Below, one piece after another: positions 16,573 to 37,384 of a stretch of DNA of 56,565 bases (position 1 is the stretch's first letter; every line of letters starts with the position of its first letter). Source of the stretch: Anaerobiospirillum succiniciproducens DSM 6400 (GTDB lineage: Bacteria > Pseudomonadota > Gammaproteobacteria > Enterobacterales > Succinivibrionaceae); the NCBI RefSeq assembly GCF_000482845.1, contig NZ_AXWV01000024.1, forward strand, positions 1 through 56,565, in the 5' to 3' direction. The position numbers and the translations under genes are program-made. The notes under the pieces are model-generated. The model had not been told where the DNA came from, did not search any database, and saw only the letters and a program-made list of their open reading frames with translations.

Positions 16573-17298
16573 TTACTTAAGACGCTGCAGCTCACGTGAA
16601 GATAAAGTAGCAGCGGCATCGTTTGGATAAGTCTGAACTACTAATTGGAAGTAGCGAGTAGCCTTATCCTTATCGCCTAAGAACTTAGAGATCATGCCAA
16701 GCTTGTATAAGGCATCTGGACGCTTTTGTGAGTCGGCAAAACGAGCTACGTTTAAGAAGCTTAAACGTGCCTGCTCGTAGTTTGCCTGAGAGTACTGAAC
16801 CTGACCGAGCCAGTACCAAGCATTTGGAGTTAAGGCATTGTCTGGATACTTCTCAACGTAGGCCTTAAATGCAGCAGCTGCGCCATTTAAGTCGTTATTC
16901 TGTACCTTGGCATAAGCATCGTTATAAGCCTTGCGAGACTCATCAGTTACGCCAGTGAGCTTACCAGTTGAAGATGAGGCAGCATTGTTGCTTGGAGCTG
17001 CAGGAGCTGCACTTGGGGTATTGCCAACTGGAAGATTGACTACAGTGTTATTGTTTGAGCTTGAAACTCCACCCTGGCGGCTTGCTAAATAACGTAATTG
17101 CTCAAGCTCACCACGTAAGGTCGCAATGTCCTGCTGCAGCTGATAGATCTGATTTTGCTGAGCATTCATGGTGCGCTGCTGCGCATCAAGCTGACGCTGC
17201 AAACTAGCCTCGTCAGCCATTGCGTTGGTTAACAACATTGTTGCAATGGTACCTGTCAGCATACCAAGCAAAAAGATAAATCCTACCTTAAACTTCAC
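16573..17298 (-). CDS. cpoB: Cell division coordinator CpoB (YbgF, Tol-Pal system)
   Basis: 241 residues, close to the usual length. A signal peptide lies at about 1-28 (ending AMADE), followed by a coiled coil at about 30-72 (QRQLDAQQRTMNAQQNQIYQL), an Asn/Ser/Ala-rich linker at about 78-115 and TPR repeats at about 120-241 (YNDAYAKV, WYWLGQVQY, ALYKLGMIS). CpoB is periplasmic and ties PBP1B activity to Tol-driven outer-membrane constriction at division. GTG 17298 has GGGAG upstream. The usual neighbours tolB and pal do not follow on either side within the window, so the gene is either separated from the tol cluster here or the cluster is beyond the spacer at 17.3-19.6 kb in another place. 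Good match. Confidence 0.9.
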   Translation of the reverse strand: MKFKVGFIFLLGMLTGTIATMLLTNAMADEASLQRQLDAQQRTMNAQQNQIYQLQQDIATLRGELEQLRYLASRQGGVSSSNNNTVVNLPVGNTPSAAPAAPSNNAASSSTGKLTGVTDESRKAYNDAYAKVQNNDLNGAAAAFKAYVEKYPDNALTPNAWYWLGQVQYSQANYEQARLSFLNVARFADSQKRPDALYKLGMISKFLGDKDKATRYFQLVVQTYPNDAAATLSSRELQRLK

Positions 17299-19449
17299 TG
17301 GTTATTCTCCCTTAACCCATAGACATATGGCGGTACATCATATCTACATACAGAACTCATGATGCCTACCTTGCCATTATCTTTTATGTGCAAGCAAGTA
17401 CTTGCAAAAGCTTGTTTGCAATGCCCTCAGGCATTACACCAAAATCCTTAAACTTGCATACTAAGCAATATATGCAAGTAATCTTGCTAAACCTCATGGT
17501 TAGCAAGATGCGGCACTTTGTGCCTAAAAATCCTAGAGCATCAGACAGGTTATGAATAAAGCCTATCCTTGCTCAATACTAAGCTTAGTCATGCTCAGCA
17601 ACAATGCTTGAGGCTACAGCATCTTCAGATGCTATGTGCACCATGCTTATAAGCGACTGTACAAAAGCGTGAGCGTTGCAAAACAATGGCACGTGCAGCT
17701 TAGAAAGGGCAAGCGTTGCTCAAGAATGGCAGGCATTGCTTTTCCTTACGTAGCATTGCCTTCATTGCCTTCATTGCCTTGTCTTGTTTTGCACATGCTT
17801 AATATGCATGAGAGTTAGCCTAGCAATTACATCACAAAAGGCATAGCTCTAAGACAGACTACTATCTTAACTAGCGTGCAGCTACTGCCGCTTTCGCTAG
17901 CCTTTGCATGTTGACAATACAGTTAAGCTTAGATTATAGCCCAGTAGTGGCGTATCGTCAGCCCTCATAAGCTTTTGATGCAATTGCACTGTAATTAACT
18001 TTGTTTATGAGCAATCTTTTTTGTTACTTAGCTTAAGGTCGATTTTTAGCCAAAAATTTCATCTAAAACCAGCCATGAGGCTAGATTGCATCTATGATGG
18101 CTTGAGATTTTTGAGCTTTTGAGATCACACTTTTTGCCGACATTTTTCACGATTGCGGCGCATTGTGACTTAGCTTAGCCATAAAGCCCGCCTATTTTGA
18201 TTGCGACTACAGCAATTTGCTTTCGTCAAGAGCCGTAAATGACGCCATAGCACAAAAAATATTTTCTGCACGAAATTTCAAAATCTTGTATCGATTTTGA
18301 ATGGTAGTTCACACTTTTAACATGTGCCCACCAAGCTCTCTTTTGTAAAACGGATTTTGTATACCACTTTTAAAGGCCTAATAATTGAGAACTGGCTCAC
18401 AGAATTTGCAAGCACTTTCACTCCACACCCCAAAGTAGCTACTAAAAGCCCATATATACGCCATTCAAGCCTGCACAAACGGCTCATGCAAAAATCGCTA
18501 ACCAAGCGTGATCGAGCTCACACTTGCTTTTCAGCACTACTATGGCCACTTCTGTCACTGTCATGCTGACAAACGCCGTATTTAAGCCATTTAAATAGAT
18601 ACAAATATGGCAAATTTGTCAAATAACTAAGCCTGCTTTGTCTAAATAGCAATCACCTTAGCAAAATGCCCAAACGTACATTTGAATCTACTATGAATCA
18701 TTATTTCGGCAAATTTTTGAAAATCCGCCCATGGGTCTATCATTGCCTCAAAAGACGATGACCCGAGCAGCATTCAATAGCGCCCCCGCCACCGCCTAAG
18801 TAGTTCTCACGATATCTACCAACTGAAAGTGCACAGAGCCTATGCTTTGGCGCTTACGTTCCCTTAGCTTTAGCCACGCAGTTGCTTATGCTGCTGCGCT
18901 AACACTCAATAGCTTTCATTGGTTGGATTCACTGAAGAAGACGCCAGTTTGTAACTAAGGCCATGTGTTACTTATGCATAGCCTTGATGATTGCAAATCA
19001 AGACAGATTACAAAGCTGCAAGCTCGACTTAGTCAAGCTTCAATATGCGCAACTAATTTTGCTTTTCGGAGGCGGAAGACTCTATCACCAATTTTGCGGT
19101 GCTTAAGAGTTTTCCAATTATTTATGACTTGTTCCAATGCCCTTGCTCATTCCCAGGCTTTCGTGCATGCAGCTTGGTCAACTGAGCTAAATGATCTTGC
19201 TTTTAGCAAAACAAATTACTACCACCGACTCTTAAACAAGAGCATTACTCCCCACTCTAAATGGGCACTCCATCAGGACGCTGCACTCCTCTCTCAAGTG
19301 TATCAGCGTCAGCTATGTACACGCTTAGGACGTAGCAGCGCCTAGCAATCCACGCTTTTCAAAGTTCAAAGATAAAGGTGCTAAGCCGCAGCCATTAGAC
19401 ACAGCACAGCCCAATGAATTCAGCTACGGCCGATGCATGGACTAAGTCC

Positions 19450-19490
19450 ATGCTGATGCTGATGCTGATGCTGATGCTGATGCTGATGCT
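19450..19490. repeat. Hexanucleotide repeat (ATGCTG)6.8
   Basis: Uninterrupted 6-base repeat 41 bases long, about 160 bases upstream of the trbC-like start. A 6-base unit keeps any frame unchanged, so if it matters it would change spacing, not reading frame. Confidence 0.95.
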
Positions 19491-19547
19491 TAGCAAGGCT
19501 AGCACCCTAGGCCTTTGCACGCCCAAATTAAGCTTACTGCACTCATA

Positions 19548-19571
19548 CAAATACGATATTTATCGTATTTG
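19548..19571. promoter_or_regulatory. 24-bp perfect palindrome upstream of the Trb locus
   Basis: CAAATACGATA at 19548-19558 is exactly inverted at 19561-19571 with a 2-base centre. No T tract follows, so it resembles a dimeric-repressor operator more than a terminator. It lies 83 bases before the trbC-like start codon and is a reasonable candidate for control of the whole locus. Confidence 0.55.
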
Positions 19572-19625
19572 CATACATAAAACGAACAACACTGCCTGAG
19601 CTATTCAGACATTCAAATGTATTAA

Positions 19626-19641
19626 AGAGGCCTTGGCCTCT
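19626..19641 (+). promoter_or_regulatory. Leader hairpin immediately before the trbC ribosome site
   Basis: AGAGGCC (19626-19632) and GGCCTCT (19635-19641) form a perfect 7-bp stem with a 2-base centre. GGAG and TTTTT follow, then ATG 19654. The hairpin abuts the ribosome site and is followed by a T run, so it could attenuate transcription or hinder translation. A related GCCTCT/AGAGGC hairpin precedes the unknown gene at 27874. Confidence 0.5.
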
Positions 19642-19653
19642 GGAGTTTTTACT

Positions 19654-21015
19654 ATGTCACTAGCCTGTTTCGGAGCTCGTTTAGCCCCTCAAGTTAACAA
19701 TACTGCCACTAGCAGTCATGCTCCTAAGCAACCATGTGTTGATGCTACCCTCGCCTCATACAGCGCTGATGGAGTACTTCTGTGGAATCCGCATGGACAA
19801 AAGTCAGATGCTGTAAATAGAAATACTCGTAGCCATGGTGCTGCTAACTGTTCATATGCTGACTGCACCGCACCACGTTTGTCTACTTTTACCATCAGCT
19901 TGTTAATGGCATTAAGCTATATATCAGTCATGCTGCTCATTGTGTATCTGAGCATCTTTTGTATGCCCGATGCAAATGCCTCAGCAGCTAGCGCCGGTTC
20001 AGGTCTGCCATATGAAGTGTGGCTCTCAGCTCTGCAGCGTTCAGCCACCGGCCCAATTGCCTTTACCATTGCGCTTTTAGGCATTATTGGTTGTGGCGCT
20101 ACCCTCATCTTTGCTGGTGGTGAAATCAGCCGTTTTATGCGCTCTATCATCTACATAATTTTGGTGATGACTCTCTTGCTAGGCGCTAACTCCCTCATGA
20201 CCAACTTCTTTAATGGCGCTTCTATCAATCCACCTGTGGACGCTAAGAGCGCAGATGCAAAATCAAGCGCACAGAATACTGCAGCAGAAAGTGCACAGAA
20301 TACTGCTGAAAAGTACGCAGCGGAGCACTCACACAAGGCCGATACTTCCACAGGAACTTTCGCATCTGACAGCGATGCTGCAGCAGCTGCAGCGCTAAAT
20401 GAAAGCGCTAAGCCAGCAGTAGATCCACGTGCTGCTAATGGTTCTGATCCACTTTCTTTAGCATACAACAGCGCTGCTTATAACAAGCAAGCTCAGGATA
20501 TGGCACGTAGAGAGCTTAAGCCTTCAGTTTTTGCTCAGCAAAGACAGAGCAGCGCAAACTCATCACATGACTTAATTGTTGTAGATGAGGCACTTGAGGA
20601 GTTAAGACAAGACTTCTTAGCCATCAATCCTGATCTTACATACGAAGAGCATATTGATCGCTTTATCTCAGGCCTTCTTAATGGCTATGGTATGGACTCT
20701 TCTAATCAGTCTAATGCCAATAACTCCAATACCAAAGACACCGATAAGTACAAGCATCCATCCGTCTTTGTGCCTAAGGAAAGTGTGTATAGCTCTCACC
20801 CTTACTTTAACAAGACCTTAAGCGCTCTAAGCGAGGTTTATGACCTTAACTCTTATCAGTCATCACCACTACCTCTGATGAATAACGAGCTTACCGTAAA
20901 GATGTCACAAGGCAGCAATGGTGATTTAGAACTACAGCTCTTTGAGTTCTCAAGTCGCACTTTAAAAGGCTTTATGCCAAGCCACCTTGACCTTAAAGAC
21001 ACGCGCCTATCCTGA
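19654..21015 (+). CDS. trbC: TrbC/VirB2-like pilin fused to a long C-terminal extension
   Basis: 453 residues from ATG 19654 (GGAG 8 bases upstream); an upstream TTG at 19633 is less likely. Residues about 78-107 are a hydrophobic leader ending ANASA. Residues about 117-185 are the VirB2/TrbC core: SGLPYEVWLSALQRSATGP, then a first TM (AFTIALLGIIGCGATLIF), the GGE turn and a second TM (IIYIILVMTLLLGA). Known VirB2/TrbC proteins are short (roughly 100-145 residues) and end about there. This one continues for about 270 residues: an Ala/Ser/Asp/Lys-rich linker (190-270), then a more ordered region with EELRQDFLAINPDLTYEEHIDRF. The leader is also preceded by about 77 polar residues. First gene of the Trb locus; TrbD follows. 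The core call is good; the tail function is unknown. Confidence 0.8.
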   Translation: MSLACFGARLAPQVNNTATSSHAPKQPCVDATLASYSADGVLLWNPHGQKSDAVNRNTRSHGAANCSYADCTAPRLSTFTISLLMALSYISVMLLIVYLSIFCMPDANASAASAGSGLPYEVWLSALQRSATGPIAFTIALLGIIGCGATLIFAGGEISRFMRSIIYIILVMTLLLGANSLMTNFFNGASINPPVDAKSADAKSSAQNTAAESAQNTAEKYAAEHSHKADTSTGTFASDSDAAAAAALNESAKPAVDPRAANGSDPLSLAYNSAAYNKQAQDMARRELKPSVFAQQRQSSANSSHDLIVVDEALEELRQDFLAINPDLTYEEHIDRFISGLLNGYGMDSSNQSNANNSNTKDTDKYKHPSVFVPKESVYSSHPYFNKTLSALSEVYDLNSYQSSPLPLMNNELTVKMSQGSNGDLELQLFEFSSRTLKGFMPSHLDLKDTRLS

Positions 21016-21153
21016 ATTGCTCCAGTGCTGATCTTGTTTTTAAACGTCATCTTTTTCTTTAGCTTTGTTAAAGACCAAAGAAACAGCACTCAAGCAAGCT
21101 TAGAAGATAGCTCTGACACATTCATACAGACAGACAATTTGCTGATTTAGTTT

Positions 21154-21447
21154 ATGCGAGAACATCGAGTTTATAAGGCTTTAGGCAATTGCACGCAGAT
21201 CTTAGGCTGCGACCGTGAGCTGTTTATGTGTAACACCTTAGCCTTAGTCACCTTAAGTATCTTCACGTACAACTTCGTCACCTTAATCATCACATTCACC
21301 ATGTGTTTGATGATCTACTTTTGCCTCTATCAAATGGGCAAATACGATACACGTATGCGCCAGGTGTGGCTGAGATCTTTGCGCTACAAAAACTACTACA
21401 CCGCGCATTGCCAATACTCAAACCAAAGCTTTTACGCCAAGCGTTAA
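21154..21447 (+). CDS. trbD: TrbD/VirB3-like inner-membrane protein
   Basis: 97 residues, the size expected for TrbD. It has the family's N-terminal pattern (VYKALGNCTQILGCDREL) followed by one or two hydrophobic helices at about 27-67 and a basic C-terminus. VirB3/TrbD works with the VirB4/TrbE ATPase in pilus biogenesis. In RP4-type loci trbE follows directly, but here the next gene is trbF, 127 bases away. ATG 21154 has no strong ribosome site. The order after trbC supports the call. Confidence 0.8.
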   Translation: MREHRVYKALGNCTQILGCDRELFMCNTLALVTLSIFTYNFVTLIITFTMCLMIYFCLYQMGKYDTRMRQVWLRSLRYKNYYTAHCQYSNQSFYAKR

Positions 21448-21489
21448 AGCATCTTTAGTCCACGCCTGTAATGGCATGGTTTAGTCGGT

Positions 21490-21533
21490 GCCTCATTAGG
21501 CAATGAGTTCTCTGCGCCTCATTAGGCAATGAG
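21490..21533 (+). repeat. Twin 18-bp hairpin repeats in the trbD-trbF gap
   Basis: GCCTCATTAGGCAATGAG occurs twice, at 21490-21507 and 21516-21533, 8 bases apart. Each copy can fold two ways: CTCATT/AATGAG with an AGGC loop, or GCCT/AGGC with a CATT loop. This is exactly where trbE is missing. A role in RNA processing or differential expression is possible. Confidence 0.8.
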
Positions 21534-21574
21534 AAGCACTAGCCTTTAGATTGGGCCTACATTGAAGGGCTTTT

Positions 21575-22252
21575 ATGAAACAGCAAAATGGAGTTGTAAG
21601 ACTCTCGGGACTTGCCAAGGTGGTAAGTACCGTAAATGAACTTAAGCGACATGGCAGCGTAGCCTCAGTGTGCGTTTTATCGCTCTCTTTAAGTTTTCTT
21701 CTGCTCGCAGCCTACATCAACCGCACCGAGCAAAGCATCATTGAGCCTTATTTGATTAGTGTGGACTCACATGGTGTGGTCTTAAATCAAGGGCGTATTA
21801 GTCACAAGCTCACTTCAAAAGAAGAGGTGCCAGCAGCGGTCATCGACTCACTCGTGTCTGACTTTATCCGCGACTTACGCACTGTAACTTTGGATAAACA
21901 ACTGCAAGCACAGCTTATCAATAAGGTCTATGCCTATATTGAGCAAGGCTCGGCAGTACACCAAAAGATCAATAACTTCTACACAGACAATAATCCCATG
22001 AGCACCAACCTCGGTGGTTTGTCGGTGCAAGTTGATATTGCCAACTTAATTCATCTAGACAACCACACTGTGCAAGTGGACTGGAAAGAGTCGATTAGCT
22101 CTAAGCGCGATCTCAAAGTCAAAGTCCATAAAAAGCGAGCACTCATTAGCTTTAGCTTTGCTGATGCTAATCAAAAGACTGCCGCTAACTACTTAGACAA
22201 TCCATTGCAGCTGTACATATCCGAACTCTTAATCTCAGACGTGATCGCCTGA
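21575..22252 (+). CDS. trbF: TrbF/VirB8-like T4SS assembly protein
   Basis: 225 residues. One TM helix at about 29-47 (ASVCVLSLSLSFLLLAAYI) is followed by a periplasmic NTF2-like VirB8 domain. The segment IIEPYLISVDSHGVVLNQG just after the membrane is typical of TrbF, and IRDLRTVTLDKQLQ and the conserved central YAYIEQGSAVHQKINNFY fit as well. VirB8/TrbF nucleates the inner-membrane part of the channel. ATG 21575 has GAAGGG upstream. Followed 43 bases later by trbG. Confidence 0.85.
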   Translation: MKQQNGVVRLSGLAKVVSTVNELKRHGSVASVCVLSLSLSFLLLAAYINRTEQSIIEPYLISVDSHGVVLNQGRISHKLTSKEEVPAAVIDSLVSDFIRDLRTVTLDKQLQAQLINKVYAYIEQGSAVHQKINNFYTDNNPMSTNLGGLSVQVDIANLIHLDNHTVQVDWKESISSKRDLKVKVHKKRALISFSFADANQKTAANYLDNPLQLYISELLISDVIA

Positions 22253-22295
22253 TAACTACACTTAAAACTAACTAGCAGGCCTTCTGGGAGTACTT

Positions 22296-23525
22296 ATGAA
22301 CTTACGCAAGTCTTTTCAAAATAATATAGCAGCCCCTGCAGCAGCATCTGATGAAGCTGCAGCTGTATACGAGTTTGCTGCTACCAATGCAGCTCCAAAC
22401 TACACCTGGCGGCATCAAGCCATGCATGGTACAAGCATGCTGGGTACTAGCATGCAGGATACTTGCAAGCTGGGAAGTAGGATGCTGGGTAAGCGCACTT
22501 TTTCGCATCTTAAGCTTAATACCTGTGCCTGTTTATGCATGAGCGCCTTGCTGCTTACTAGTGTGCCTACTTGCTTTAGTCTTGCTCATGCTGATAGTGC
22601 CCTTGATGACATCATCGCTTTAGGAGGTAATCAAAATACTCTATCTAAGCAAGATATTGAGATTCTTAAGGCTTTAGAGGCATCTAACAATCCTAAAGCT
22701 AAAAAGTCAGCAGTAAGCCGTCCAATCGTTGAACGCCCTGGCGAAGTACGCTTTGTCTATGGTGCAGGCAGGCCTACCGTTGTGTGTTCTTTACTGCATG
22801 TGTGTGACATTTCACTTGAACCTGGCGAGAGCGTGGTAGATGTGCAAACTGGCGATTCAGCTCGATGGGTTGTAGGCAGATCAGCTCATGGTTCTGCTCA
22901 AGGCATGGTAGAGCATGTAACGATTAAACCTACCGACATTGGTCTTGAGTCTAATCTCACTATCTACACTGATAAGCGCAGTTACTCCATTGACATTAAG
23001 TCCTCAGCAAAAGACTTCATGCCTAATGTAAGTTTTATTTATACCGAACAGAGTATGCAGCGCTATCAAAACATCAAAAACGAACTGCTCGCCCGCAAAC
23101 GTAATAACGAGCTGAACTTGTCAGCAAGTGGCGAGGAGCTAGCGTTAGCTGATGAAGATGAGTATGTATCAGAGACTGCAGCTATACCTGGACGCAAACG
23201 CGCTAAAAGCTCTGTAGCACTACTTTCTGGCCTGGACTTTAACTATCAGGTCAGTGGCGATAAGGAAGTCATTCCGCTACGTGTCTTTAATGATGGCAAA
23301 CATACTTATGTACAAATGCCGCAAAAGCTCTCTGAGGGCATGTTGCCAGCCATAGTTGAGGTGACGCAAACCCATGTCTTCTCTGAAGACGCCACTGCAG
23401 TCACTAACTATCGTTTGCTGGGCAATAACTTTGTGGTCGATGGCATTCCACGCCATCTACGCCTCTTTATTGGAAATGAAGACTCAGGACGAGCTATGAG
23501 CGCCGATATTATCCGCAATTCTTAA
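22296..23525 (+). CDS. trbG: TrbG/VirB9-like outer-membrane core subunit with N-terminal extension
   Basis: 409 residues; TrbG of RP4 is about 300. The export signal (CLCMSALLLTSVPTCFSLAHA) lies at about 79-99, after about 75 polar residues with a Met/Gly-rich repetitive stretch at 44-66. The ribosome site GGGAG before ATG 22296 supports the long start. The VirB9 domain follows: RFVYGAGRPTVVCSLLHVCDISLEPGE (split here as RFVYGAGRPT and CDISLEPGE), ARWVVGRSA, HVTIKPTDIGLESNLTIYTD and a C-terminal beta region with YRLLGNNFVVDGI. VirB9/TrbG pairs with TrbI and a lipoprotein in the outer-membrane core complex. Confidence 0.9.
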   Translation: MNLRKSFQNNIAAPAAASDEAAAVYEFAATNAAPNYTWRHQAMHGTSMLGTSMQDTCKLGSRMLGKRTFSHLKLNTCACLCMSALLLTSVPTCFSLAHADSALDDIIALGGNQNTLSKQDIEILKALEASNNPKAKKSAVSRPIVERPGEVRFVYGAGRPTVVCSLLHVCDISLEPGESVVDVQTGDSARWVVGRSAHGSAQGMVEHVTIKPTDIGLESNLTIYTDKRSYSIDIKSSAKDFMPNVSFIYTEQSMQRYQNIKNELLARKRNNELNLSASGEELALADEDEYVSETAAIPGRKRAKSSVALLSGLDFNYQVSGDKEVIPLRVFNDGKHTYVQMPQKLSEGMLPAIVEVTQTHVFSEDATAVTNYRLLGNNFVVDGIPRHLRLFIGNEDSGRAMSADIIRNS

Positions 23526-23610
23526 TATCACCCACAGTGCTCACACTCATAACACTTGTTTTATTGCGCTCTAGGCAATTACTCCTCTTAAGAGAGGTTT
23601 GCGATTAATT

Positions 23611-25884
23611 ATGATTAACTCCAAACAGCATCAGTGCATCTTATCTCGCAGCAAGCTTGCACTTGCACTCACTGCTGCCTGCTCAACCATACTGTTAAAT
23701 GCTTGCAACCTAAATGACTTTGCTAATTCATTTCGTGACTTTGGTGGTGTTCAGATCGATAGCCATGAACTCGAGCTTAAACAGCAGTATCTGTACTCAA
23801 AATATGTCTGCTTAGACTTTGTCCCAGCACTGTCTCACTACTATGCATTAAATCGCACTACCTTTGCAGTGTATGCCGATGATAAAGCTACTGATGAACT
23901 TAAGCAGCACTATGAGGCTTTAGCTGATGTCATGCAGCAGCATGGTGCTGCAGTATGCCGGAGTAAAGCAAGCTGCAAAGGTCGAGCAACTGTCGTTAAC
24001 AGCTCTTTAATCAAATCTCAAGATGACAGTATCTACATGGTTAATGTGAATACCAATAAGCTCAAGCTCTCTCGTCTTTACACCACTCAAGGCGAGTCTT
24101 TAGGACCAATGAGTGTCTTATCGCACAAGAAGGCCCTCTACCGCAGCAAGCTTACCGAGCCTAATCAATACCGCAGCGCTCAAGACTTTGAGGCACAAGC
24201 CCAAGAGCAACTGTTAAATGCATACCGTGCACAGACCATTGAGCAAACTCAAGATCTGTTTATTGATGAAAACGCTCAGGCCACTGCCAACATCACTGGT
24301 GCAATCGCTGCTGCCGCTACCTCAACTAGCACAGCAACTAAAGCAAGCAAATCAGCTAAGTTAAAGGCCTCAAATAAATCAAGATCAGTAAACAAGACTA
24401 AGAGCAAGGCCATCGCCCGCGCCACAACAAACTCTGCATCGCCAGCAGCTTACGCATCAACATCTGCATCAGCTGCCTCAAGCAAGGCATCTGCAAATGC
24501 CAATGCCAATGCGATCGCTAGCTCTAATGCCAAGAGCGAAGGCACTTCACTAGCTCAGGTTAATGATGTTAATGCGGCATCTAAGCAAGGTGAGAGTTCA
24601 GGTGCTAGCAAGCGCAGTGAGAGTCTCTTACCATCTTTAGACATGATGAGCGCAAAGCTTAGAGTGAATCAGAATGTCGAGGGATCTTCATTAACTGGCA
24701 CGCTGCTAAGTGAGTCAGTGATGAATAAAGGCGCTGCCGAGGTTAAGGGAAGTGTTGCTGATGAGACCAAAACTAGGATGAGTGCGCCTGATAGCAGCTT
24801 GAGTGCTCAAGATAATGGCGTAAAGAGCGAGGAGCGCAAGGGATCTATTGGAGCAAACTGGCTAAGTCGCCTTTTGGGCATATCATCTGCCAATGCCATG
24901 GGGCTTGGTGAGGCTATGGATTTGGCTAAGGACAAGGTGAGGCAAAAGTCAGAACTAGAAAATACCAGCACCGGACAATTAGCGAGCAAACAAGATCCGA
25001 TACCCATCCCTGACCAACTTAAGGAAGTGAGTATTAAGCCACAAAAGGTAAGTAACAACAATCCGCTTGAAGGCTTTGTCAGAGATATTCAATACAAAAA
25101 CTTATATGGCAACTCTGTAATCTGGAAGTTTCATCCTGAATTACAAGAAGCTAAACGTATTGAGCTTGAGCAAATGCTGGCACTTGATGCCGCTAAGACC
25201 AATCCTGACCTGTTCAGGGCCGATCTTGATTACCTTAACTACATGTGTATTAAGGTCCATCCACAAGAGCAGCAGGATGCTTTACATGATGTCTCACCAA
25301 TAGCTCATACAAAGGATAAGTACTGGATTAAAGAGCGTTTGGATGCCAAGGGCTTCAATTTTGATGAGCACCAGCTTTACTTTGCTCATGATGGCACTAT
25401 TAGAACTAAGTACACCAAGGATGAAGAAGAGCTCTTTAGCCGTCAGTTTGCTGCAGCCATCCATGAGGCCAAGAAACGAACCGTACCAGATGCATACCCT
25501 TGGGAAGTTACTGATAGTGATGAAGTTACTTTTGCTAAGGTCACTGCCATGGTTAACGAAGGTAAAACCCTCGATTTAACTTTAAAACCTTTAACCGATC
25601 TGTCGGACTTTGCCTCTTCTAAGTACTTAACTAAATACCTCGCTCCATATGAAGAGCAGCTAATGAAGAATGACTACAAGAACTTAATGATATTCAAGTA
25701 CGTGCAGCCACATGAGGATCATAGTGCACCACATTATGATTGCCCTGCAGCCTACTATGGCCACTTTGCTTTATCTAAGTATTTATCCAAAGATGTAATG
25801 AATTACTTAACTAAGTCTTATGTACAGCACTTAACCACTAAACCTAACGATGCGCCATATGAGCACCAAACGCTAAGTGCTTAG
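23611..25884 (+). CDS. Large lipoprotein in the trbH position of the T4SS
   Basis: 757 residues from ATG 23611; a TTG at 23599 is too close to AGAGAGG. A lipoprotein signal is clear: LALTAACSTILLNAC with the lipobox Cys at about residue 32. Residues about 210-330 are low complexity (Ala/Ser/Lys/Asn-rich, TSASAASSKASANANANA-like). Residues about 340-475 are polar. The C-terminal about 280 residues look folded, with many His/Tyr and long helices. RP4-type loci have a small lipoprotein, TrbH, between trbG and trbI; this gene holds that slot but is several times larger and I see no sequence match. I infer an outer-membrane core lipoprotein; the C-terminal domain is unrecognised. Confidence 0.65.
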   Translation: MINSKQHQCILSRSKLALALTAACSTILLNACNLNDFANSFRDFGGVQIDSHELELKQQYLYSKYVCLDFVPALSHYYALNRTTFAVYADDKATDELKQHYEALADVMQQHGAAVCRSKASCKGRATVVNSSLIKSQDDSIYMVNVNTNKLKLSRLYTTQGESLGPMSVLSHKKALYRSKLTEPNQYRSAQDFEAQAQEQLLNAYRAQTIEQTQDLFIDENAQATANITGAIAAAATSTSTATKASKSAKLKASNKSRSVNKTKSKAIARATTNSASPAAYASTSASAASSKASANANANAIASSNAKSEGTSLAQVNDVNAASKQGESSGASKRSESLLPSLDMMSAKLRVNQNVEGSSLTGTLLSESVMNKGAAEVKGSVADETKTRMSAPDSSLSAQDNGVKSEERKGSIGANWLSRLLGISSANAMGLGEAMDLAKDKVRQKSELENTSTGQLASKQDPIPIPDQLKEVSIKPQKVSNNNPLEGFVRDIQYKNLYGNSVIWKFHPELQEAKRIELEQMLALDAAKTNPDLFRADLDYLNYMCIKVHPQEQQDALHDVSPIAHTKDKYWIKERLDAKGFNFDEHQLYFAHDGTIRTKYTKDEEELFSRQFAAAIHEAKKRTVPDAYPWEVTDSDEVTFAKVTAMVNEGKTLDLTLKPLTDLSDFASSKYLTKYLAPYEEQLMKNDYKNLMIFKYVQPHEDHSAPHYDCPAAYYGHFALSKYLSKDVMNYLTKSYVQHLTTKPNDAPYEHQTLSA

Positions 25885-26210
25885 CGCCTTGCAAGCACGT
25901 TTAACTCTTGGTCTTGCACACAGATTCATTGCCAAATCTTATCTCATGGCAATGAGCGTATTAGCAATCTCAAGCCATGAGTTAGCGACCAAGATCTTGC
26001 TGTACATATTCTTAAACTTAAAAATGGAGACGCAATTTCACCTTTCTTGATGACATGCTCGCTAGGCTTGCTTCACTAAGCTGTGATGTGCTGTGCTTGG
26101 TTTAGCTTAACTTGGCTTGGCTTGGCTTTACGGCTAGCTTGGTTTGGACAGGCTTGGCTTTATGGCTGGGCTTGGCTTGATTGTAGTTTGGGTGTGATTG
26201 CGTAATTGTT
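25885..26210. other. Low-complexity spacer before trbI
   Basis: 326 bases without a gene. From about 26096 to 26190 the plus strand is a degenerate run of GCTTGG/CTTGG words, similar in flavour to the (TTTGG)16 tract at 53.7 kb but eroded. Confidence 0.6.
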
Positions 26211-27548
26211 ATGGAATGCCTTAATCAAAAAGTTAGCTCCTCACGAGCAACTAAAGCACCTTTGTACCTGCTTTTGGGTATATCTGCAGGCGTCAGTGTG
26301 CTCTCCATGCTCAGCTCCTTAGGCCAATCTGAGCGTAGTCAAACTATGGAAGATGAAGAGGATGCGATAACAACTGCCCATAGCTCAGCAATCTTAACTG
26401 AGCTTAAGTCATCCTCAGAAAAAGAGCATATCGCTTTAACCTCAACTGATGACTTCTTAAGCGACTTAGTTAACTACACCGGACTTTATGAAGGCGCAAG
26501 CTTTAATGAGCATAAAGCTGAGGAGCTACTGCCACAACCTCAAGAGAAAGTTGCACGGGTACAAATTGAGAGCCAAGCACCAGCGGTAGTAGTTGAGAGT
26601 GCCCACGATAAAGCTGTCAAAGCACTGCAAGAGCGCCGTGCCTCAGCACTACTTAAGGCCTTGTCCTCATCTGTAGCAGTTGAGTCTGTCATGCAAGACA
26701 AGACCAATCTAGCTGCCTCTACAAAACTTGTCTCTGGCCATGGCTACGAAGCAGCACGTGATGGTCATGCAGTTGGGGTTAATGCTCAGCAATATCTAAA
26801 CAATGCCTCAGCACGATTAAATGCCATTAACTCAGCTTCCTTATCTAGCGACAGTGGCGTTTATACATCAGGTGCAAGCTCTTTAGGCACTGCTTTAGAT
26901 GGCAGAACTATGGATGCATATAACTCGCTTGCTTATGCTGGTTCACACTTTGATACCACCATGCAAAAAGCAGCCTCTGCCTTTACTTTAATGCAAGGAT
27001 CAGTAGTTCCATGCGTACTTTTAACTGGCGTTAACTCTGATGTTCCGGGTATGGTACAAGCCCAGGTAATATCAGATGTTTATGACTCTACTAGCGGCGA
27101 GCATGTACTCATTCCTAAAGGCTCCAAGCTTTTAGGCCAATATGCCTCAGGTCCAATGCGTGGCCAAAAGCGCATGATGTTTGGCTTTAATCGCCTTATC
27201 TTCCCAAACGGTCGCTCTATGCAATTAGGATCAATGCCTGCAAGTTCACGAGATGGTTATGCCGGCATTGGCGCTAATGTAGACAATCGCTTCTTTGAAA
27301 TTCTTGGCAATGCCATTTTATTAGGCGGTGTCACTGCCGGCATTGCTCTGAGCGTTGATGATAACGATCGTGACGCTAATGGCGATCTCACTCTCAACGG
27401 AGCTCTTTCCCAAGGCCTTGGCCAATCTGTGGGTCGTGTTATCACGCAGATTATCGAGCGCAATATGAATATCGCGCCGACACTCACTATCAAACCAGGC
27501 TATGAGTTCAATATCACGCTCATGCAAGATATCAACTTTGCAAACTAA
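26211..27548 (+). CDS. trbI: TrbI/VirB10-like T4SS core protein
   Basis: 445 residues, close to TrbI. A TM helix at about 18-38 (LYLLLGISAGVSVLSML) is followed by a long variable periplasmic linker. The VirB10 C-terminal domain is at about 265-445: SVVPCVLLTGVNSDVPGMV, HVLIPKGSKLLGQY, FNRLIFPNGRSMQLGSM, GNAILLGGVTAGIAL (the antenna-like hydrophobic helix) and TLTIKPGYEFNITLMQDI. VirB10/TrbI spans both membranes and links ATP use to the outer-membrane channel, although no ATPase gene is present in this window. ATG 26211 has a poor ribosome site. Confidence 0.9.
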   Translation: MECLNQKVSSSRATKAPLYLLLGISAGVSVLSMLSSLGQSERSQTMEDEEDAITTAHSSAILTELKSSSEKEHIALTSTDDFLSDLVNYTGLYEGASFNEHKAEELLPQPQEKVARVQIESQAPAVVVESAHDKAVKALQERRASALLKALSSSVAVESVMQDKTNLAASTKLVSGHGYEAARDGHAVGVNAQQYLNNASARLNAINSASLSSDSGVYTSGASSLGTALDGRTMDAYNSLAYAGSHFDTTMQKAASAFTLMQGSVVPCVLLTGVNSDVPGMVQAQVISDVYDSTSGEHVLIPKGSKLLGQYASGPMRGQKRMMFGFNRLIFPNGRSMQLGSMPASSRDGYAGIGANVDNRFFEILGNAILLGGVTAGIALSVDDNDRDANGDLTLNGALSQGLGQSVGRVITQIIERNMNIAPTLTIKPGYEFNITLMQDINFAN

Positions 27549-27873
27549 GTTGATTTAATCCAAAAACCTTTTGCCAAGCCCAAGCATAAGCACATAGAGC
27601 ATCACTTAAGCGAGGCTAATTCCTGACTCTTATTTAAGGTATGCCCATTGATAGCTAATGCTTGCTGCTACAAGCGCTAGCGTTTGCATGGTTGCGCGTG
27701 TACGACGTAGCTTAGTGCGACGCAGTTTAGTACGGGTAGTTTAGTGCTTCGTTGCGCTGGTGCAGCGTTCACTGTTGACCGGATTTGTTTGTGCTCTTGG
27801 CAAACTTTAAAACTTTTACATTGGAGGGCAGCACACGGGCCTCTTTAACTAGAGGCTACGCACTGATTTGCGT
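27549..27873. other. Spacer between trbI and the unknown gene
   Basis: About 325 bases. It contains loosely repeated GTAGCTTAGTGCGACGCAG-like words at 27700-27760. A hairpin GCCTCT (27839-27844)/AGAGGC (27851-27856) is related to the one before trbC. Confidence 0.5.
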
Positions 27874-29403
27874 ATGTACGATCATAGACATATTAGCTAT
27901 GTACTACCTAGTGGCGTGGATATGGGACTACTTCAAGCTGTTGCCCCAACGATCGAATGGAACAAGTTAAAGCGCAAAGTAAGCTATGAGCCAAAATTCA
28001 AAGCTAAGAGCACTATCGACAATGTACTCGTCTCTTTAAACGATGAGTCATTAGATAGCTCTTGTTATGAAGAAGGCCTTAAGCTCATTGAGCACTTTGA
28101 GTCTAATGACTGCCTCACTCTGTCACATAGCATTACCTCTGCTGCAGCTATCGTAGAGAGAGTCTTTGAGCACCTCAATGCCATTAAAGAACGCGCTATA
28201 CAAGAAGTGCTCTTTGACAGACTCCCTGACTTTGACAAGCAGAATCAAGTAAAGAGCAAAACATCTAAGTTTTCTTCTACATCAAACCATGCTCTATCTT
28301 CTGCCAAGGCCGCTGCTGCTAAGGCTGTTAGCAGCATGGATAAGCCACTTAGCGATATGAACATACCAAGTGATGCCATGGCCGTGTTTGAAGATGGCGC
28401 TCAGGTGACTAGCAATGGACTTGAAGGTATTGCTGAGGCTACTAGCAATGGACTTGAAGGTGTTGCAAAGCTTGTGCATGGCGATGAGTTTGAGCATGGC
28501 TTTGAAGAGTCACTCAATTGCAATGCCATGAGCCAGTATGCTTCAGATACTACTTTGAGGCCTATTGTGTATGCCCTGTCCAATGGCAAGTTTATCAACA
28601 TCAAAGCATCTGATGGATCGTACTTTCACTCCTTTGAAAACAAAGGCTATATAAAGCATTTGTACGACTCACAAGCTGCCTTTTCTCAAGATGAAGTACA
28701 TGACATTAGCGTAAAGGTTAAGTCGCTCTCTAGTGAGTATAGCTGTGCACTGCAAAGCAAGAAGCAGCATGGCGGTGCAGCTCTTGCCAAACAGAGCTAC
28801 CAAGATGAGGTCATGAAGATTTTCACAGAAGCTGGCTATCGTTATATGAGTATCAAACTCATTGCACAGCTCTATGAGACTCTCTGTGCTTTAGATAGTG
28901 CCCATCGTAGCTTGCATAACTATGTGCCTTTTGAACCAGTGAATAACTATGAAGTTAGCGCCATGCCGCTTGATGTTGAAGTCAGCCCCAAGATCCGTCT
29001 GTTTGTCCGTCTCCTAGGCCTTTATCGTCTGTGCTTTGATTACAGCAAGGACAATGAGTGGTGCTCCATCATGCAAGATAGCTTCACTCTCTTTAGAGAC
29101 TATACCGCCGCACAGCTGTTTAATCGCGATGCCATCAAAGATGTGCCTCATGATTTAGCCGCTATGCAAATTGAGCACGATATCAATCGCTCCAAAGAGA
29201 ACAAGCGCTTCTTTAGCAGCCCTGAGCTGTTAGATAACGATGCTTGCCTGCTGTATGACTGCCGCTTGCACCATATCACTAATGAACGAGCTATTAAGTT
29301 TGAAAATTTCTTAGCTATCGCAGCCTATATCAATGCACGGCAGCGCTTTGTTAAGCACTTACAGGCAAACTCATGCACGCAAACAGCTGCCACTACTTGT
29401 TGA
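27874..29403 (+). CDS. Unknown protein encoded between trbI and trbJ
   Basis: 509 residues from ATG 27874; a TTG at 27868 and an ATG at 27922 are alternatives, and none has a good ribosome site. I do not recognise it. No signal peptide or TM helix is evident, so it is probably cytoplasmic. Visible features: a helical N-terminal part (SHSITSAAAIVERVFEHLN), an Ala/Ser/Lys linker at about 130-160, a twice-repeated ATSNGLEGxA motif at about 175-195, and a largely helical C-terminal part. It has no Walker motifs, so it is not the missing ATPase, and no His-hydrophobe-His cluster of a relaxase. It lies inside the Trb locus in the same orientation, so a role in that system is inferred from position only. 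Confidence 0.75.
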   Translation: MYDHRHISYVLPSGVDMGLLQAVAPTIEWNKLKRKVSYEPKFKAKSTIDNVLVSLNDESLDSSCYEEGLKLIEHFESNDCLTLSHSITSAAAIVERVFEHLNAIKERAIQEVLFDRLPDFDKQNQVKSKTSKFSSTSNHALSSAKAAAAKAVSSMDKPLSDMNIPSDAMAVFEDGAQVTSNGLEGIAEATSNGLEGVAKLVHGDEFEHGFEESLNCNAMSQYASDTTLRPIVYALSNGKFINIKASDGSYFHSFENKGYIKHLYDSQAAFSQDEVHDISVKVKSLSSEYSCALQSKKQHGGAALAKQSYQDEVMKIFTEAGYRYMSIKLIAQLYETLCALDSAHRSLHNYVPFEPVNNYEVSAMPLDVEVSPKIRLFVRLLGLYRLCFDYSKDNEWCSIMQDSFTLFRDYTAAQLFNRDAIKDVPHDLAAMQIEHDINRSKENKRFFSSPELLDNDACLLYDCRLHHITNERAIKFENFLAIAAYINARQRFVKHLQANSCTQTAATTC

Positions 29404-29474
29404 TTTAAAGCTCTAGATCGGGATAAAAGCCCTTGTAACTCTATATTTTTTTAGGAGGACGGCTCCAAGGGGCG

Positions 29475-30446
29475 GTGAGCTTGACTATGCTCATGGCCCT
29501 TGTGGTCCGATTAACTATGTCTAAGCACCAAGATTCTTTATTTTTTGCCTTAAGCGTCGCTCGCAGATTGTTTAGCAACGCCATCAAGCCTATTTTCTTA
29601 AATATGCATGAGCGTAAGGCTTTACAAAGCCTTGCATCTAAAGCATCATCGCAACTCAAAAGAGGCCCATCTTATCATGCAGCATCTAGCATTAAGCTTT
29701 CTGTGGCTCTTATTTTGGGACTAAATTGTACCAATGCTCATGGAGCAATGCCGGTCTTTGATGGTGCTGTACTTGCTCAGACTATACAGGAGCAAGTGCT
29801 AGCCGTTGAGCAATGGGCTCGCGATAACATCAATCAGGCTAGGCAAATTAATGAGCTGCTCTCAGGTAATACCATTGCTAGTGATACGCAAATGCTCATG
29901 GACAAGAATTACACCATGGATAACAAATACACCTGGGAGTATATTCACAAGCTGCAGCAAGATACTATGGCCATGCTCTACGCTTCCAAAGCAATCTGGG
30001 ATGAGTTTGGCTCAGCTAATCGCTATTACACCTCATTTAGAAAAGCTCAAGCCTGGGATCAGTGCATGCAATCGGGCAATTGTACTTTCTCTCAGACCTT
30101 ACAAAATCTTGAGGATAGCTCCATCTCTCAGGCCATGCAGGCTTATAAAAATGCCGAGCAAATGAATGACAAACTCTTAGTGCAGATTGATAAGCTCCAA
30201 CGCATTGCAGATGAAACACAAAACACTAACTCACAAGCCGCCACATTAGATGGTCTGTCAAAGATTAACGGCTCAGTAGCCTCCTCCATGATTGATCTCA
30301 ATGCACAAGTAGCGCAGCTTACTAAGCTGCAAGGACATGCACTAGCTAAGCAGAGCAATCAAGTCCTGGCAGATGAGTTTTACTTTAGAGAGGTTGCCAA
30401 AAGCACTTCCAAAAAAGTAGAAACTCTCCCCACTCGCTTGCCATAG
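29475..30446 (+). CDS. trbJ: TrbJ/VirB5-like T4SS protein
   Basis: 323 residues from GTG 29475; ATG 29487 or 29517 are also possible, and AGGAGGA lies at 29453-29459. A hydrophobic export segment sits at about 73-90 (LSVALILGLNCTNAHG), again after about 70 residues of N-terminal extension. The mature part begins AMPVFDGAVLAQTIQEQV, typical of TrbJ. It is mainly helical with coiled-coil character, with a Cys pair in DQCMQSGNC (about 205-213) as seen in TrbJ-type proteins. VirB5/TrbJ is a minor pilus component. It follows the unknown gene and precedes trbL, as in P-type loci. Confidence 0.8.
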   Translation: MSLTMLMALVVRLTMSKHQDSLFFALSVARRLFSNAIKPIFLNMHERKALQSLASKASSQLKRGPSYHAASSIKLSVALILGLNCTNAHGAMPVFDGAVLAQTIQEQVLAVEQWARDNINQARQINELLSGNTIASDTQMLMDKNYTMDNKYTWEYIHKLQQDTMAMLYASKAIWDEFGSANRYYTSFRKAQAWDQCMQSGNCTFSQTLQNLEDSSISQAMQAYKNAEQMNDKLLVQIDKLQRIADETQNTNSQAATLDGLSKINGSVASSMIDLNAQVAQLTKLQGHALAKQSNQVLADEFYFREVAKSTSKKVETLPTRLP

Positions 30447-30591
30447 CCACACAGCAGTGCCCCATCAGCTCAGCTTAGCTTAGCTTAATAGCTAAGCTTA
30501 GTAGCTAAGCCTTCATCTAACCAAGAGAAGCGCACTTTGTGGCTGTTGTCTGTGATCTTGTTTTATCTACCTGCATGGGATGATGTTTTCT

Positions 30592-30655
30592 CCAGAAACT
30601 CTGGAAGGTGTTTTATCCAAAACCTATGGATGGCAATTTATCCAAAACTGTGGAA
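30592..30655 (+). repeat. Reiterated TCCAnAAC...TGGA hairpin motifs before trbL
   Basis: Three spaced short inverted repeats lie in a row: TCCAGAAACTCTGGA at 30592-30606, TCCAAAACCTATGGA from about 30614, and TCCAAAACTGTGGA from about 30639. Each is preceded or followed by GGTG/GGCA and TTTAT words. They make a repeated leader just upstream of the preferred trbL start. Confidence 0.75.
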
Positions 30656-30724
30656 GGTGCTCTATCCACAAAGTTAATGCACAAGTGCAAAATGCAAAGG
30701 TGCATGGTCAGTGAGGTTAAAGAT

Positions 30725-31693
30725 ATGGTGTTGCCACAGCAATTCGGCAATGCACAGCCTAATAAAAGCGCAATGCACACTCTTTATGTGAGCGGCGCTT
30801 ATCTTGTGCTAACTGCGCTTGTCCTTGCATTAATGAGCATTGAGTGCAAGGCAGCAAGCACTAGTCTTAGTGATGAAATCAGTCTTGCAGAAGTGCTTAA
30901 GCTCTATGAATACAAGCTTTTAGATATGCGTATGAGCATCATGAGTTTTTGTCAGACTATGATGTTCTACTTAGGCGCTATTAGCCTGGTAATCGAGGGG
31001 TCTAAGGCTATCTTAAGACATGCCGATTACTTCTACATCTTCACAGCCATGATCCGCATTATTCTAACTTTTGGTGCGATCTACTTTCTCATTTTCAATG
31101 GCTATGAATTTGCCTCGGATGTCATCAACTCATTAATTCAACTTGGTGCTGGTGATGAGCATAGAGGAAACTTAGAGGGCATGCTGCAGTTAATTGAGTC
31201 GTTCTTTACCTTAGCCGACAATTACGCCAAGCAAATGGCCGGCAAGAGCAAAGTTTATTACTACGTCTTCTTAACTGTAATGTTTGTGCTCTTAGTTGCC
31301 TTTATCTTGCGCTATGTCACTCTCTACGTCTGGTCAATGCTCTTGTGTGTAGCCGGCATGATTCTAATTCCTTTTGGCGCTCTTGCCTCTACTCGTGGTC
31401 TAGCTATTAGCTACTTTAGAGCCGTATTAGCTACAGGTATAGCCTTGATGACCCTCACCATCATCTACATCATTGGTATAGACGTGATTAGACTGCTTAC
31501 AGTCAGAATCAATAACTATATTGCATCTGGCGGAACTATCCATCTACAGGATGCTGGCTACATCGTTATGGTCATGCTTTTTGTGGTTGGCATGGGATTT
31601 AAGCTACCTAGCATGATGTCATCCTTGGTATCTGTAAGCTCCTTTAACTATTTTACGCGCTTAAGCTTGCGCCCAAATAATCAAATTGTCTAG
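30725..31693 (+). CDS. trbL: TrbL/VirB6-like polytopic T4SS membrane protein
   Basis: 322 residues from ATG 30725, chosen because GAGG lies 8 bases upstream. The frame is open to a GTG at 30608, but that segment overlaps the hairpin repeats. An N-terminal hydrophobic segment (LVLTALVLALMSIECKA) is followed by five or so TM helices, with FLILFNGYEFASDVINSLIQLG-like VirB6 features (IFNGYEFASDVINSL) after the second. VirB6/TrbL is the polytopic inner-membrane channel component. It is shorter than RP4 TrbL because the long C-terminal tail is missing. Last recognisable gene of the locus. Confidence 0.85.
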   Translation: MVLPQQFGNAQPNKSAMHTLYVSGAYLVLTALVLALMSIECKAASTSLSDEISLAEVLKLYEYKLLDMRMSIMSFCQTMMFYLGAISLVIEGSKAILRHADYFYIFTAMIRIILTFGAIYFLIFNGYEFASDVINSLIQLGAGDEHRGNLEGMLQLIESFFTLADNYAKQMAGKSKVYYYVFLTVMFVLLVAFILRYVTLYVWSMLLCVAGMILIPFGALASTRGLAISYFRAVLATGIALMTLTIIYIIGIDVIRLLTVRINNYIASGGTIHLQDAGYIVMVMLFVVGMGFKLPSMMSSLVSVSSFNYFTRLSLRPNNQIV

Positions 31694-34536: not shown

Positions 34537-34610
34537 CTAGTCGAGCAAGCAAAATTTGGTGCTTTGCTCTAGTCGAGCAAGCAAGACTGGGTGCATTGCT
34601 CTAGTCGAGT
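34537..34610. repeat. 32-bp repeats that continue into the nadE stop codon
   Basis: Two 32-bp units (34537-34568, 34569-34600) begin CTAGTCGAGCAAGCAA. A third, shorter copy begins at 34601 as CTAGTCGAGTAAG, which is the nadE stop codon and its last codons read from the plus strand. The array therefore looks copied from the 3' end of the gene. Confidence 0.85.
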
Positions 34611-36640: not shown

Positions 36641-37384
36641 AAATCCTCGTCGTTTGCTCAACGCCATTAACACATTGCATTCAGGCACTATTAAGTACCA
36701 CTGCAACGTTCTAGTTTAATCCTTTTAGCATGCTAGTGACATGCTATTGCAAAAGAGTTCTAGAGACGTTGCTACCACTTATCTTAAGGCGTCATCGCTA
36801 TTTTTAATAGTTTGCCCGGATGTACTGCATCAAAATGGCCACTACACGGCCAAATTTGGGCAAAATACAGCCACAATAAAACGGCCGCAGAATTAGATAT
36901 TATTGCTTGCTTTTACTAAGAACAATGGCACAATATGACGCGTCAAACTGACTTAGAACAAGCATTAGATTAACGCTGTCATAGATGTATTTTGCTAAGC
37001 AAGTGCGTTACATTTGCGTATCTGTTGTGTGCATCCGTACTATAGCTTGAAAGTAGAGTACTATTGCTTGAATGCGTTTGTTGCACTTAAGCTAACTTAG
37101 TTAGCTGCTTAGCCTCATAGCTTTATTGATTAATTTTGTTCTCATAAGCTGAGTTAATCAAATTTTCACTAACTAATGCTACCTTGAGTTGAGCATGGCT
37201 TGAAATGTAGCTGTGTATGGTGGTGTGTAGTGTTATGACCACATAGGCATTGTGACGCTGTGATGTCTCTTGTCTAAAAGCAATTAACAGCAAGATCAAA
37301 GAGCGCCCAATGTTGGTCTCACCTAACTTATCAAGCCGAGGCAATACATCTTATTTAGCCAATCACAAGCAATGGGGAGGAATT
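36641..37384. other. Divergent spacer between nadE and glgX
   Basis: About 740 bases that must hold the promoters of two divergently read genes. AT-rich, with some GGCC-containing words at 36840-36890. I could not assign a promoter with confidence and saw no gene. Confidence 0.5.

What the first reader, a model, noticed from the sequence alone, without database searches (positions are those of the whole stretch)
19654..31693. Trb-type secretion locus without its ATPases
The order trbC, D, F, G, lipoprotein, I, unknown, J, L follows RP4-type loci, but trbE (VirB4), expected between trbD and trbF, is absent with only 127 bases there, and no trbB, coupling protein or relaxase lies in the window. 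The assembly proteins are therefore kept without the energy and DNA-processing parts. Either the ATPases are encoded elsewhere in the genome, or this is a repurposed envelope apparatus. The genes are also separated by unusually long, hairpin-rich gaps.
Basis: partly seen in the sequence, partly recalled or inferred. Interest (0 to 1): 0.72.

Follow-up and report, generated by a model that had tools for sequence, protein, structure and literature searches.

The report
Scattered Trb secretion machine, ATPases relocated
In this bacterium the genes of one type IV secretion machine are spread over three places of the genome: the two motor genes missing here lie together at a second place, and a coupling protein plus a relaxase-like enzyme cut into two genes lie at a third, so the machine is probably complete and is predicted to export DNA rather than being a broken or repurposed remnant.

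Summary
In detail: the window carries trbC, D, F, G, a TrbH-like lipoprotein, trbI, an unknown gene, a trbJ-position gene and trbL, without trbE or trbB. The ATPases are not lost: intact trbB and trbE lie side by side on another contig, between kdsB-like and proQ genes, a site empty in G003 and G004 of the genus. In 16 of 17 fetched relatives trbE sits in its usual place in the cluster (in the 17th a contig ends there), and 7 of 9 genus relatives share the window's flanks. So the window species moved two genes out of an ancestral cluster. This TrbE kind groups on one side of the VirB4 tree (40 family genomes), apart from mobile Trb copies. A third locus encodes a divergent SXT-type TraD (found in 39 of 41 such genomes) and a MOBH-like, HD-fold relaxase, split into two adjacent genes in the window genome. 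Best reading: a chromosomally fixed, scattered Trb machine, complete in trans and likely exporting single-stranded DNA. The substrate and the Trb-TraD partnership are inferred. Hairpin-rich gaps are not supported.

The parts
13583..16069 (-). TamA-like Omp85 protein, conserved left flank of the trb site
   Evidence: Pfam Omp85 and POTRA_TamA_1; near the trb cluster in G003, G005, G006, G008
16573..17298 (-). CpoB/YbgF-like TPR protein, conserved left flank
   Evidence: Pfam TPR over cut-off, TolA_bind_tri 27.1 bits, below its cut-off of 30.1; beside trbB in G003, G005, G006, G007, G008
17299..19632 (.). gap in which relatives carry trbB; no trbB remnant here
   Evidence: trbB lies between CpoB-like gene and trbC in genus relatives; tblastn of TrbB rows gave no hit here, TrbE rows only hits of E > 4
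19633..21015 (+). trbC / VirB2 pilin (460-aa frame, TTG start as listed)
   Evidence: Pfam TrbC 42.1 bits
21154..21447 (+). trbD / VirB3
   Evidence: Pfam VirB3 35.8 bits
21448..21574 (.). 127-base gap where relatives carry trbE; no remnant
21575..22252 (+). trbF / VirB8
   Evidence: Pfam VirB8 77.3 bits
22296..23525 (+). trbG / VirB9
   Evidence: Pfam CagX 133.2 bits
23599..25884 (+). TrbH/VirB7-like lipoprotein, 761 aa with a long low-complexity middle
   Evidence: lipobox-like LLNAC read from the sequence; weak NCBIfam TrbH match; N-terminal part matched in genus relatives and G026
26211..27548 (+). trbI / VirB10
   Evidence: Pfam TrbI 192.3 bits
27868..29403 (+). unknown 511-aa protein between trbI and trbJ
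   Evidence: no family over cut-off in Pfam, none in NCBIfam (E 0.1) or PADLOC (E 0.01); 5 protein clusters, 188 member sequences, 93-97% identity, nothing more distant at E 0.001 among 7996 scored candidates
29475..30446 (+). trbJ / VirB5-position protein
   Evidence: weak VirB5 match; 45-56% identity to the same-position gene in eight genus relatives
30608..31693 (+). trbL / VirB6
   Evidence: Pfam TrbL 54.4 bits
32877..34292 (+). MFS transporter, conserved right flank
   Evidence: Pfam MFS_1; beside trbL in G001, G002, G003, G005, G006
34601..36706 (-). NAD synthase, right flank
   Evidence: Pfam NAD_synthase; same place in G006

Best explanation
This is the envelope-spanning half of a Trb-type type IV secretion system whose two assembly ATPase genes, trbB and trbE, lie together at another site of the same genome, and which is likely fed with single-stranded DNA by a divergent TraD-type coupling protein and a two-piece MOBH-like relaxase encoded at a third site. 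Shown: the cluster, the relocated intact trbB-trbE pair, the order with trbB and trbE in place in relatives, the empty target site in two genus relatives, the grouping of this TrbE kind across the family, the coupling protein and the split relaxase-like domain. Inferred: that products of the three loci assemble into one machine, that TrbE/TrbB power pilus and channel assembly, that TraD recruits a relaxase-DNA complex, that the two relaxase pieces join to rebuild one HD metal centre, and that chromosomal single-stranded DNA is passed to neighbouring cells by contact rather than released for uptake.
For: TrbE (1214 aa; NCBIfam TrbE models up to 515 bits though below their cut-offs, Pfam CagE_TrbE_VirB over cut-off) and TrbB (766 aa; TrbB_P 254 bits, cut-off 304.55; Pfam T2SSE over cut-off) are adjacent on contig C10, with Walker A in both and a Walker B in TrbE. 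In 17 relatives with fetched loci trbE lies between trbD/trbC and trbF in 16 (in G006 the contig ends after trbE), and trbB lies upstream of trbC/trbD in 15 (in G002 and G009 the contig starts later). Flanks match the window in 7 of 9 genus relatives. kdsB-proQ is contiguous and free of trb genes in G003 and G004. The VirB4 tree puts 40 family rows on one side of a branch (SH-aLRT 100), with the ten genus rows, the window genome among them, grouped inside. TraD of SXT type is found in 39 of 41 such genomes. TrbE distances correlate with those of TrbI (r 0.95, n 18), TrbB (0.72, n 16) and TraD (0.71, n 15). MOBH-like motifs lie near TraD; in the window genome the two halves match consecutive parts of the family profile (hhalign probabilities 97.4 and 96.5). 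The model of the G026 homolog matches HD-fold proteins. 46 of 51 database clusters, the window genome's own included, hold the second half at 1430-1464 aa. No PF03432 or PF03389 relaxase was found in the genome.
Against: The Trb-TraD/relaxase partnership rests on co-occurrence; the loci are unlinked, and distance correlation also arises from vertical descent alone. TraD-type proteins occur also in 14 of 15 family genomes without core Trb. The histidine triad of MOBH is changed to x-H-D/N in most core-type relaxases, the window's included. TraI_2 (PF07514) does not reach E 1e-3 in the window genome (15.6 bits of 23.9 for the first half, none for the second), and lies on the TraD contig in only 20 of the 39 TraD-bearing core genomes. 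G007 and G039 showed no TraD (draft genomes). Other relaxase families than PF03432, PF03389 and PF07514 were not searched, and no oriT was sought. ComEC was not found, which speaks against release of DNA for uptake by siblings.
Confidence: 0.6

Rival explanations
1. A repurposed protein-secretion apparatus: the Trb machine with relocated ATPases exports proteins (perhaps the unknown neighbours) and has no part in DNA transfer, while TraD and the relaxase serve something else.
For: Species-restricted proteins of unknown function sit with the machine genes: the 511-aa protein in the window, and p571 and p1015 beside trbB-trbE. The three loci are unlinked. The relaxase histidine triad is altered. 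Virulence T4SS without VirD4 or relaxase exist (recalled).
Against: A TraD-type coupling protein is kept in 39 of 41 genomes with core TrbE. H, H, HD, K, D, H and D columns are invariant in 17 of 17 aligned relaxases, 13 core-type and 4 canonical. No strong VirD4 and no PF03432 or PF03389 relaxase was found in the window genome.
Confidence: 0.2
2. TraD and the relaxase-like pair belong to a separate, perhaps mobilizable, system and the Trb machine works without a dedicated coupling protein; co-occurrence is vertical inheritance of two independent core loci. (This rival overlaps with the first one.)
For: Unlinked loci; in the single-contig genome G030 they lie about 1.65 Mb apart. TraD-type proteins occur also in 14 of 15 family genomes without core Trb.
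Against: Of the 41 core-Trb genomes 35 show no strong VirD4; in 33 of these (not G007, G039) a TraD-type protein is the coupling-protein candidate found, with a second, F-type-like copy in G015, G031, G045 and G047.
Confidence: 0.2
3. A decaying conjugative element caught in the process of losing parts.
For: Scattering, gene fission and long low-complexity expansions.
Against: The frames read in the window genome are intact; TrbE residues 430-1020 are 97-100% identical over 24 listed database clusters; relaxase half 2 is full length in 46 of 51 clusters; the TrbE kind is family-wide; no pseudogene remnants in the gaps searched.
Confidence: 0.06
4. Assembly or binning artefact: trbE/trbB belong in the window cluster or to another organism.
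For: The genome is a 155-contig draft, 94% complete; no second assembly of the same species could be read at DNA level.
Against: Both junctions lie inside contigs whose flanks match genus relatives; TrbE falls inside the genus group; contamination estimate 0.27%.
Confidence: 0.04

Closest known systems
RP4/Ti-type Trb conjugation system (P-type, MPF_T)
   Same: TrbB, C, D, E, F, G, I, L homologs, in one ordered cluster in relatives
   Different: Scattered over unlinked loci in the window species; MOBH-like relaxase and SXT-type TraD, where MPF_T is often paired with MOBP (PMC3158045, passages); TrbE far from plasmid TrbE (12 best plasmid places listed at 32-35% identity)
Gonococcal Genetic Island ssDNA-secreting T4SS and SXT/R391 transfer genes
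   Same: MOBH-type relaxase together with a TraD coupling protein (PMC4207684, passages)
   Different: Their transport complex is F-type (MPF_F; GGI stated, SXT recalled), here Trb-type; here the DNA-processing genes are unlinked from the channel genes and the relaxase is split; no ComEC found in the genome for uptake
Rickettsiales vir T4SS 'archipelago'
   Same: Vertically kept chromosomal T4SS whose genes are scattered over separate islets (PMC2653234, abstract and passages)
   Different: Other lineage and Trb-type genes; fetched relatives of the window species keep trbB-L together; TraD and a relaxase-like enzyme of another kind present
3kq5, uncharacterised Coxiella burnetii protein
   Different: Function unknown; no sequence match of the relaxase profile to any PDB chain at E 0.01

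Membership tests
Trb-type (MPF_T) T4SS | VirB3/6/8/9/10 homologs (TrbD, L, F, G, I) and TrbC pilin | tested here: met
   Pfam matches over cut-off
Trb-type (MPF_T) T4SS | TrbE (VirB4) and TrbB (VirB11) ATPases present in the genome with Walker A motifs | tested here: met
   Contig C10; NCBIfam TrbE and TrbB models match below their curated cut-offs, Pfam over
Trb-type (MPF_T) T4SS | Genes in one cluster, trbB-C-D-E-F-G-H-I-J-L | tested here: not met
   Split in the window genome. In relatives trbB, C or D, E and F lie on one contig in 14 of 17; G002, G006 and G009 are cut by contig ends
Conjugative element (ICE or plasmid) | Element boundaries with integrase or replicon, mobility between sites | tested here: inconclusive
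   No integrase search was made; same chromosomal flanks in 7 of 9 genus relatives and tree groups that follow genera g1, g3 and g4 argue for a fixed locus; genus g11 is not one group in that tree
T4 coupling protein (VirD4/TraD superfamily) | TrwB_AAD_bind and TraG-D_C domains, Walker A/B, N-terminal membrane segment | tested here: met
   61.9 and 57.3 bits, both over cut-off; Walker motifs; membrane segment read from the sequence, not predicted by a call
SXT_TraD (TIGR03743) | Score over the curated cut-off of 366 bits | tested here: not met
   302 bits for the window genome's protein; the copy I take as the Trb partner reaches the cut-off in 7 of 39 core genomes
MOBH relaxase | HD motif and HD-hydrolase fold | tested here: met
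MOBH relaxase | 3H motif (feature named in PMC12857230, passages) | tested here: not met
   x-H-D or x-H-N in core-type proteins, Y-H-D in the window genome; G004 keeps HHH; of four canonical family proteins two have HHH and two x-H-H
MOBH relaxase | One polypeptide that nicks at oriT | not testable with these tools
   Split in two genes in the window genome; activity untested
GGI-type ssDNA secretion | MPF_F transport complex | tested here: not met
   Channel genes in the window are Trb-type; F-type profiles were not searched in this genome

The most novel reading that the evidence does not exclude
The family (Succinivibrionaceae, by inference from database names) carries an ancient, chromosomally fixed DNA-export machine that joins a Trb channel to an SXT-type TraD and a MOBH-like relaxase at distant loci. 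In the window species it has been broken further, with the ATPases moved out of the cluster and the relaxase working as a two-polypeptide enzyme whose HD metal centre is assembled from separate proteins, giving a core-genome mating system that moves chromosomal DNA between cells without being a mobile element.
Probability: 0.3. Interest if true: 0.85.

Novelty: new variant of a known kind. Interest (0 to 1): 0.6.

Why it matters
Scattered conjugation-type gene sets are described as relatively rare in Proteobacteria outside Rickettsiales (PMC3158045, passages). A gut lineage that is not an obligate intracellular parasite (recalled) and keeps a Trb machine as a core trait, with intact-cluster relatives at the same chromosomal site, would let the break-up of a conjugation locus be followed step by step. 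A two-gene MOBH-like relaxase, if active, would be a new form of an enzyme family of which only one member (GGI TraI) is described as characterised at the molecular level (PMC12857230, passages). It also warns that 'no ATPase nearby' does not mean a repurposed or dead system.

Tried and rejected
Repurposed apparatus without ATPases: rejected because trbB/trbE are present elsewhere. Remnants of trbB/trbE in the window gaps: none. DNA similarity between the window and the 20-kb C10 stretch L003, which would show a duplicated block: none at E 1e-3. Orthologs of p571, p1015 and the 511-aa protein in relatives: none in 9 other genus genomes for the first two, none beyond 93-97% copies for the third. 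FtsK as the coupling-protein hit: rejected for the 2048-aa protein; short hits at profile positions of about 130-218 in large frames are probably FtsK (my reading, not tested) and were not counted. Canonical VirD4: strong hits (E < 1e-60) in 10 of 56 genomes, 6 of them core-Trb; none in the window genome, whose only hit (4.8e-7) is the TraD-type protein. Viral contigs: one weak hit. PDB sequence search with the relaxase profile: nothing at E 0.01. PADLOC: nothing for five proteins. Hairpin-rich gaps: not above shuffles. Other relaxase families (such as MOBF, MOBV, MOBC) and integrases were not searched. The mechanism of relocation (block copy with reciprocal loss, or two moves) could not be decided.
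Full report
What is in the window. Window 19633-31693 (+) encodes, in order, TrbC/VirB2, TrbD/VirB3, TrbF/VirB8, TrbG/VirB9, a lipoprotein with a weak TrbH match, TrbI/VirB10, a 511-aa protein without a family, a trbJ-position protein and TrbL/VirB6. Six of the nine are over Pfam's cut-offs. The trbD-trbF gap is 127 bases, and no trbE or trbB remnant was found in the gaps searched.

Where the ATPases are. The window is the whole of contig C18 of a draft genome (3.80 Mb, 155 contigs, 94% complete). A VirB4-profile search of that genome hits contig C10. There a 766-aa TrbB and a 1214-aa TrbE lie in tandem (L003:16232-13932 and 13824-10180, minus strand). Walker A is present in both, and TrbE has a Walker B motif. 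TrbB carries a second, partial copy of its N-terminal domain (residues 230-290 against 431-491, 34% identity, E 7.5e-7). The pair is flanked by two proteins of unknown function (571 and 1015 aa) found in none of the nine other genus genomes, and lies between kdsB-like and proQ genes.

Ancestral state. In loci fetched from 17 relatives, trbE lies between trbD (or trbC) and trbF in 16; in the 17th, G006, the contig ends after trbE. trbB lies just upstream of trbC (or trbD) in 15; in G002 and G009 the contig starts later. In the genus, the cluster has the window's flanks (TamA/CpoB-like genes on one side, MFS on the other, at least one side seen) in 7 of 9 relatives; G004 and G009 did not show them in the stretches fetched. 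At the target site G004 and G003 have lpxK-kdsB-proQ-prc-pepN with no trb genes between. The proQ stretches of G001, G002, G005, G006 and G008 show no trb genes either, but none of them shows the kdsB side, and that of G002 starts at proQ; G007 and G009 were not looked at. The simplest reading is that the window species moved trbB and trbE, which are not neighbours in relatives, out of the cluster and into one new site. How this happened is not decided.

How widespread the system is. TrbI occurs in 52 of 56 family genomes (the weak hits are probably F-type TraB, my reading). A tree of 60 VirB4 rows puts 40 family rows on one side of a branch (SH-aLRT 100), apart from 8 mobile-type family rows and 12 rows of other Proteobacteria; the ten genus rows, the window genome included, form one group (quick method, drawn with a midpoint root, long branches and uneven composition flagged by the program). 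Groups g3 and g4 hold together, g11 does not. G046 has the same protein in two contig pieces and was left out of the tree, which makes 41 core genomes. Among the 120 listed of 472 database relatives of TrbE, identity falls from 43% or more to 38% or less outside this kind, with one listed row between at 45% over 91% of the query; the 12 best plasmid places are at 32-35% (capped at 5000 records).

DNA-processing parts. TIGR03743 (SXT-type TraD) matches in 54 of 56 family genomes; leaving out short FtsK-like hits, 39 of the 41 core genomes have it, G007 and G039 not. In the window genome it is a 2048-aa protein on contig C9 with T4CP domains over Pfam cut-offs but under the TIGR03743 cut-off (302 of 366 bits). 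TraD-type proteins are also in 14 of the 15 genomes without core Trb, in three of them (G020, G024, G049) on the same contig as a weak TrbI hit, so presence alone proves no partnership. Strong VirD4 occurs in only 6 of the 41 core genomes and not in the window genome. G030, one contig of 3.47 Mb, has trb at 0.57 Mb and TraD at 2.22 Mb.

Mechanism. I infer that TrbC-L build the envelope channel and pilus, TrbE and TrbB power assembly in trans, TraD recruits the relaxase-DNA complex, and single-stranded chromosomal DNA is exported. The two relaxase pieces would have to meet, since the first two invariant histidines and the later HD, H and D lie on different chains; that these are the metal ligands follows from the HD superfamily (recalled). 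No ComEC was found (the same search rang in 10 of 14 control genomes), so contact-dependent transfer is more likely than release for uptake. Distances between TrbE and TraD correlate (r 0.71, n 15) about as TrbE with TrbB (0.72, n 16), less than with TrbI (0.95, n 18); common descent alone can give this.

Literature. Searches for Succinivibrionaceae with type IV secretion (8 papers listed) and Anaerobiospirillum with secretion system (19 papers, 8 listed) showed no title on this system (listings only). PMC3158045 (passages) says scattered systems are relatively rare outside Rickettsiales, that many MOB/MPF combinations exist, and that MPF_T with MOBP is a frequent one; so a Trb channel with a MOBH-like relaxase is unusual rather than unthinkable. 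PMC4207684 (passages) links MOBH relaxases with TraD and MPF_F transport. PMC2653234 (abstract and passages) describes the Rickettsia archipelago. Flanking genes were checked with Pfam; the names CpoB, KdsB, PepN and Prc are my reading of those domains.

Noticed in passing
L003:13932-16232 (G000 C10): TrbB carries a second, partial copy of its N-terminal domain (766 aa against 313-524 aa in relatives with a whole gene).
   Followed up: partly
L205:16043-18908 (G000 C9:51042-53907): Three tandem flagellin-like genes, alike over the 70 residues printed (Pfam run on the first only), end about 0.4 kb upstream of the first relaxase half.
   Followed up: no
L035:7302-13448 and TraD of genus relatives: TraD reaches 2032-2229 aa in four genus genomes (G000, G001, G004, G008) against 619-875 aa in seven genomes of other genera, though frames of up to 2170 codons occur in genus g11 too; the extra length looks low-complexity.
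   Followed up: partly
L153:13788-17532 and L155:4958-8561: In G030 and G029 (genus g11) two relaxase-like genes lie in tandem near TraD; in one of each pair the motif patterns were not found.
   Followed up: no
L035:14414-16576 (G000 C9): 720-aa protein with a long KAPAKTATKA-type repeat, histone-like by eye, downstream of TraD.
   Followed up: no
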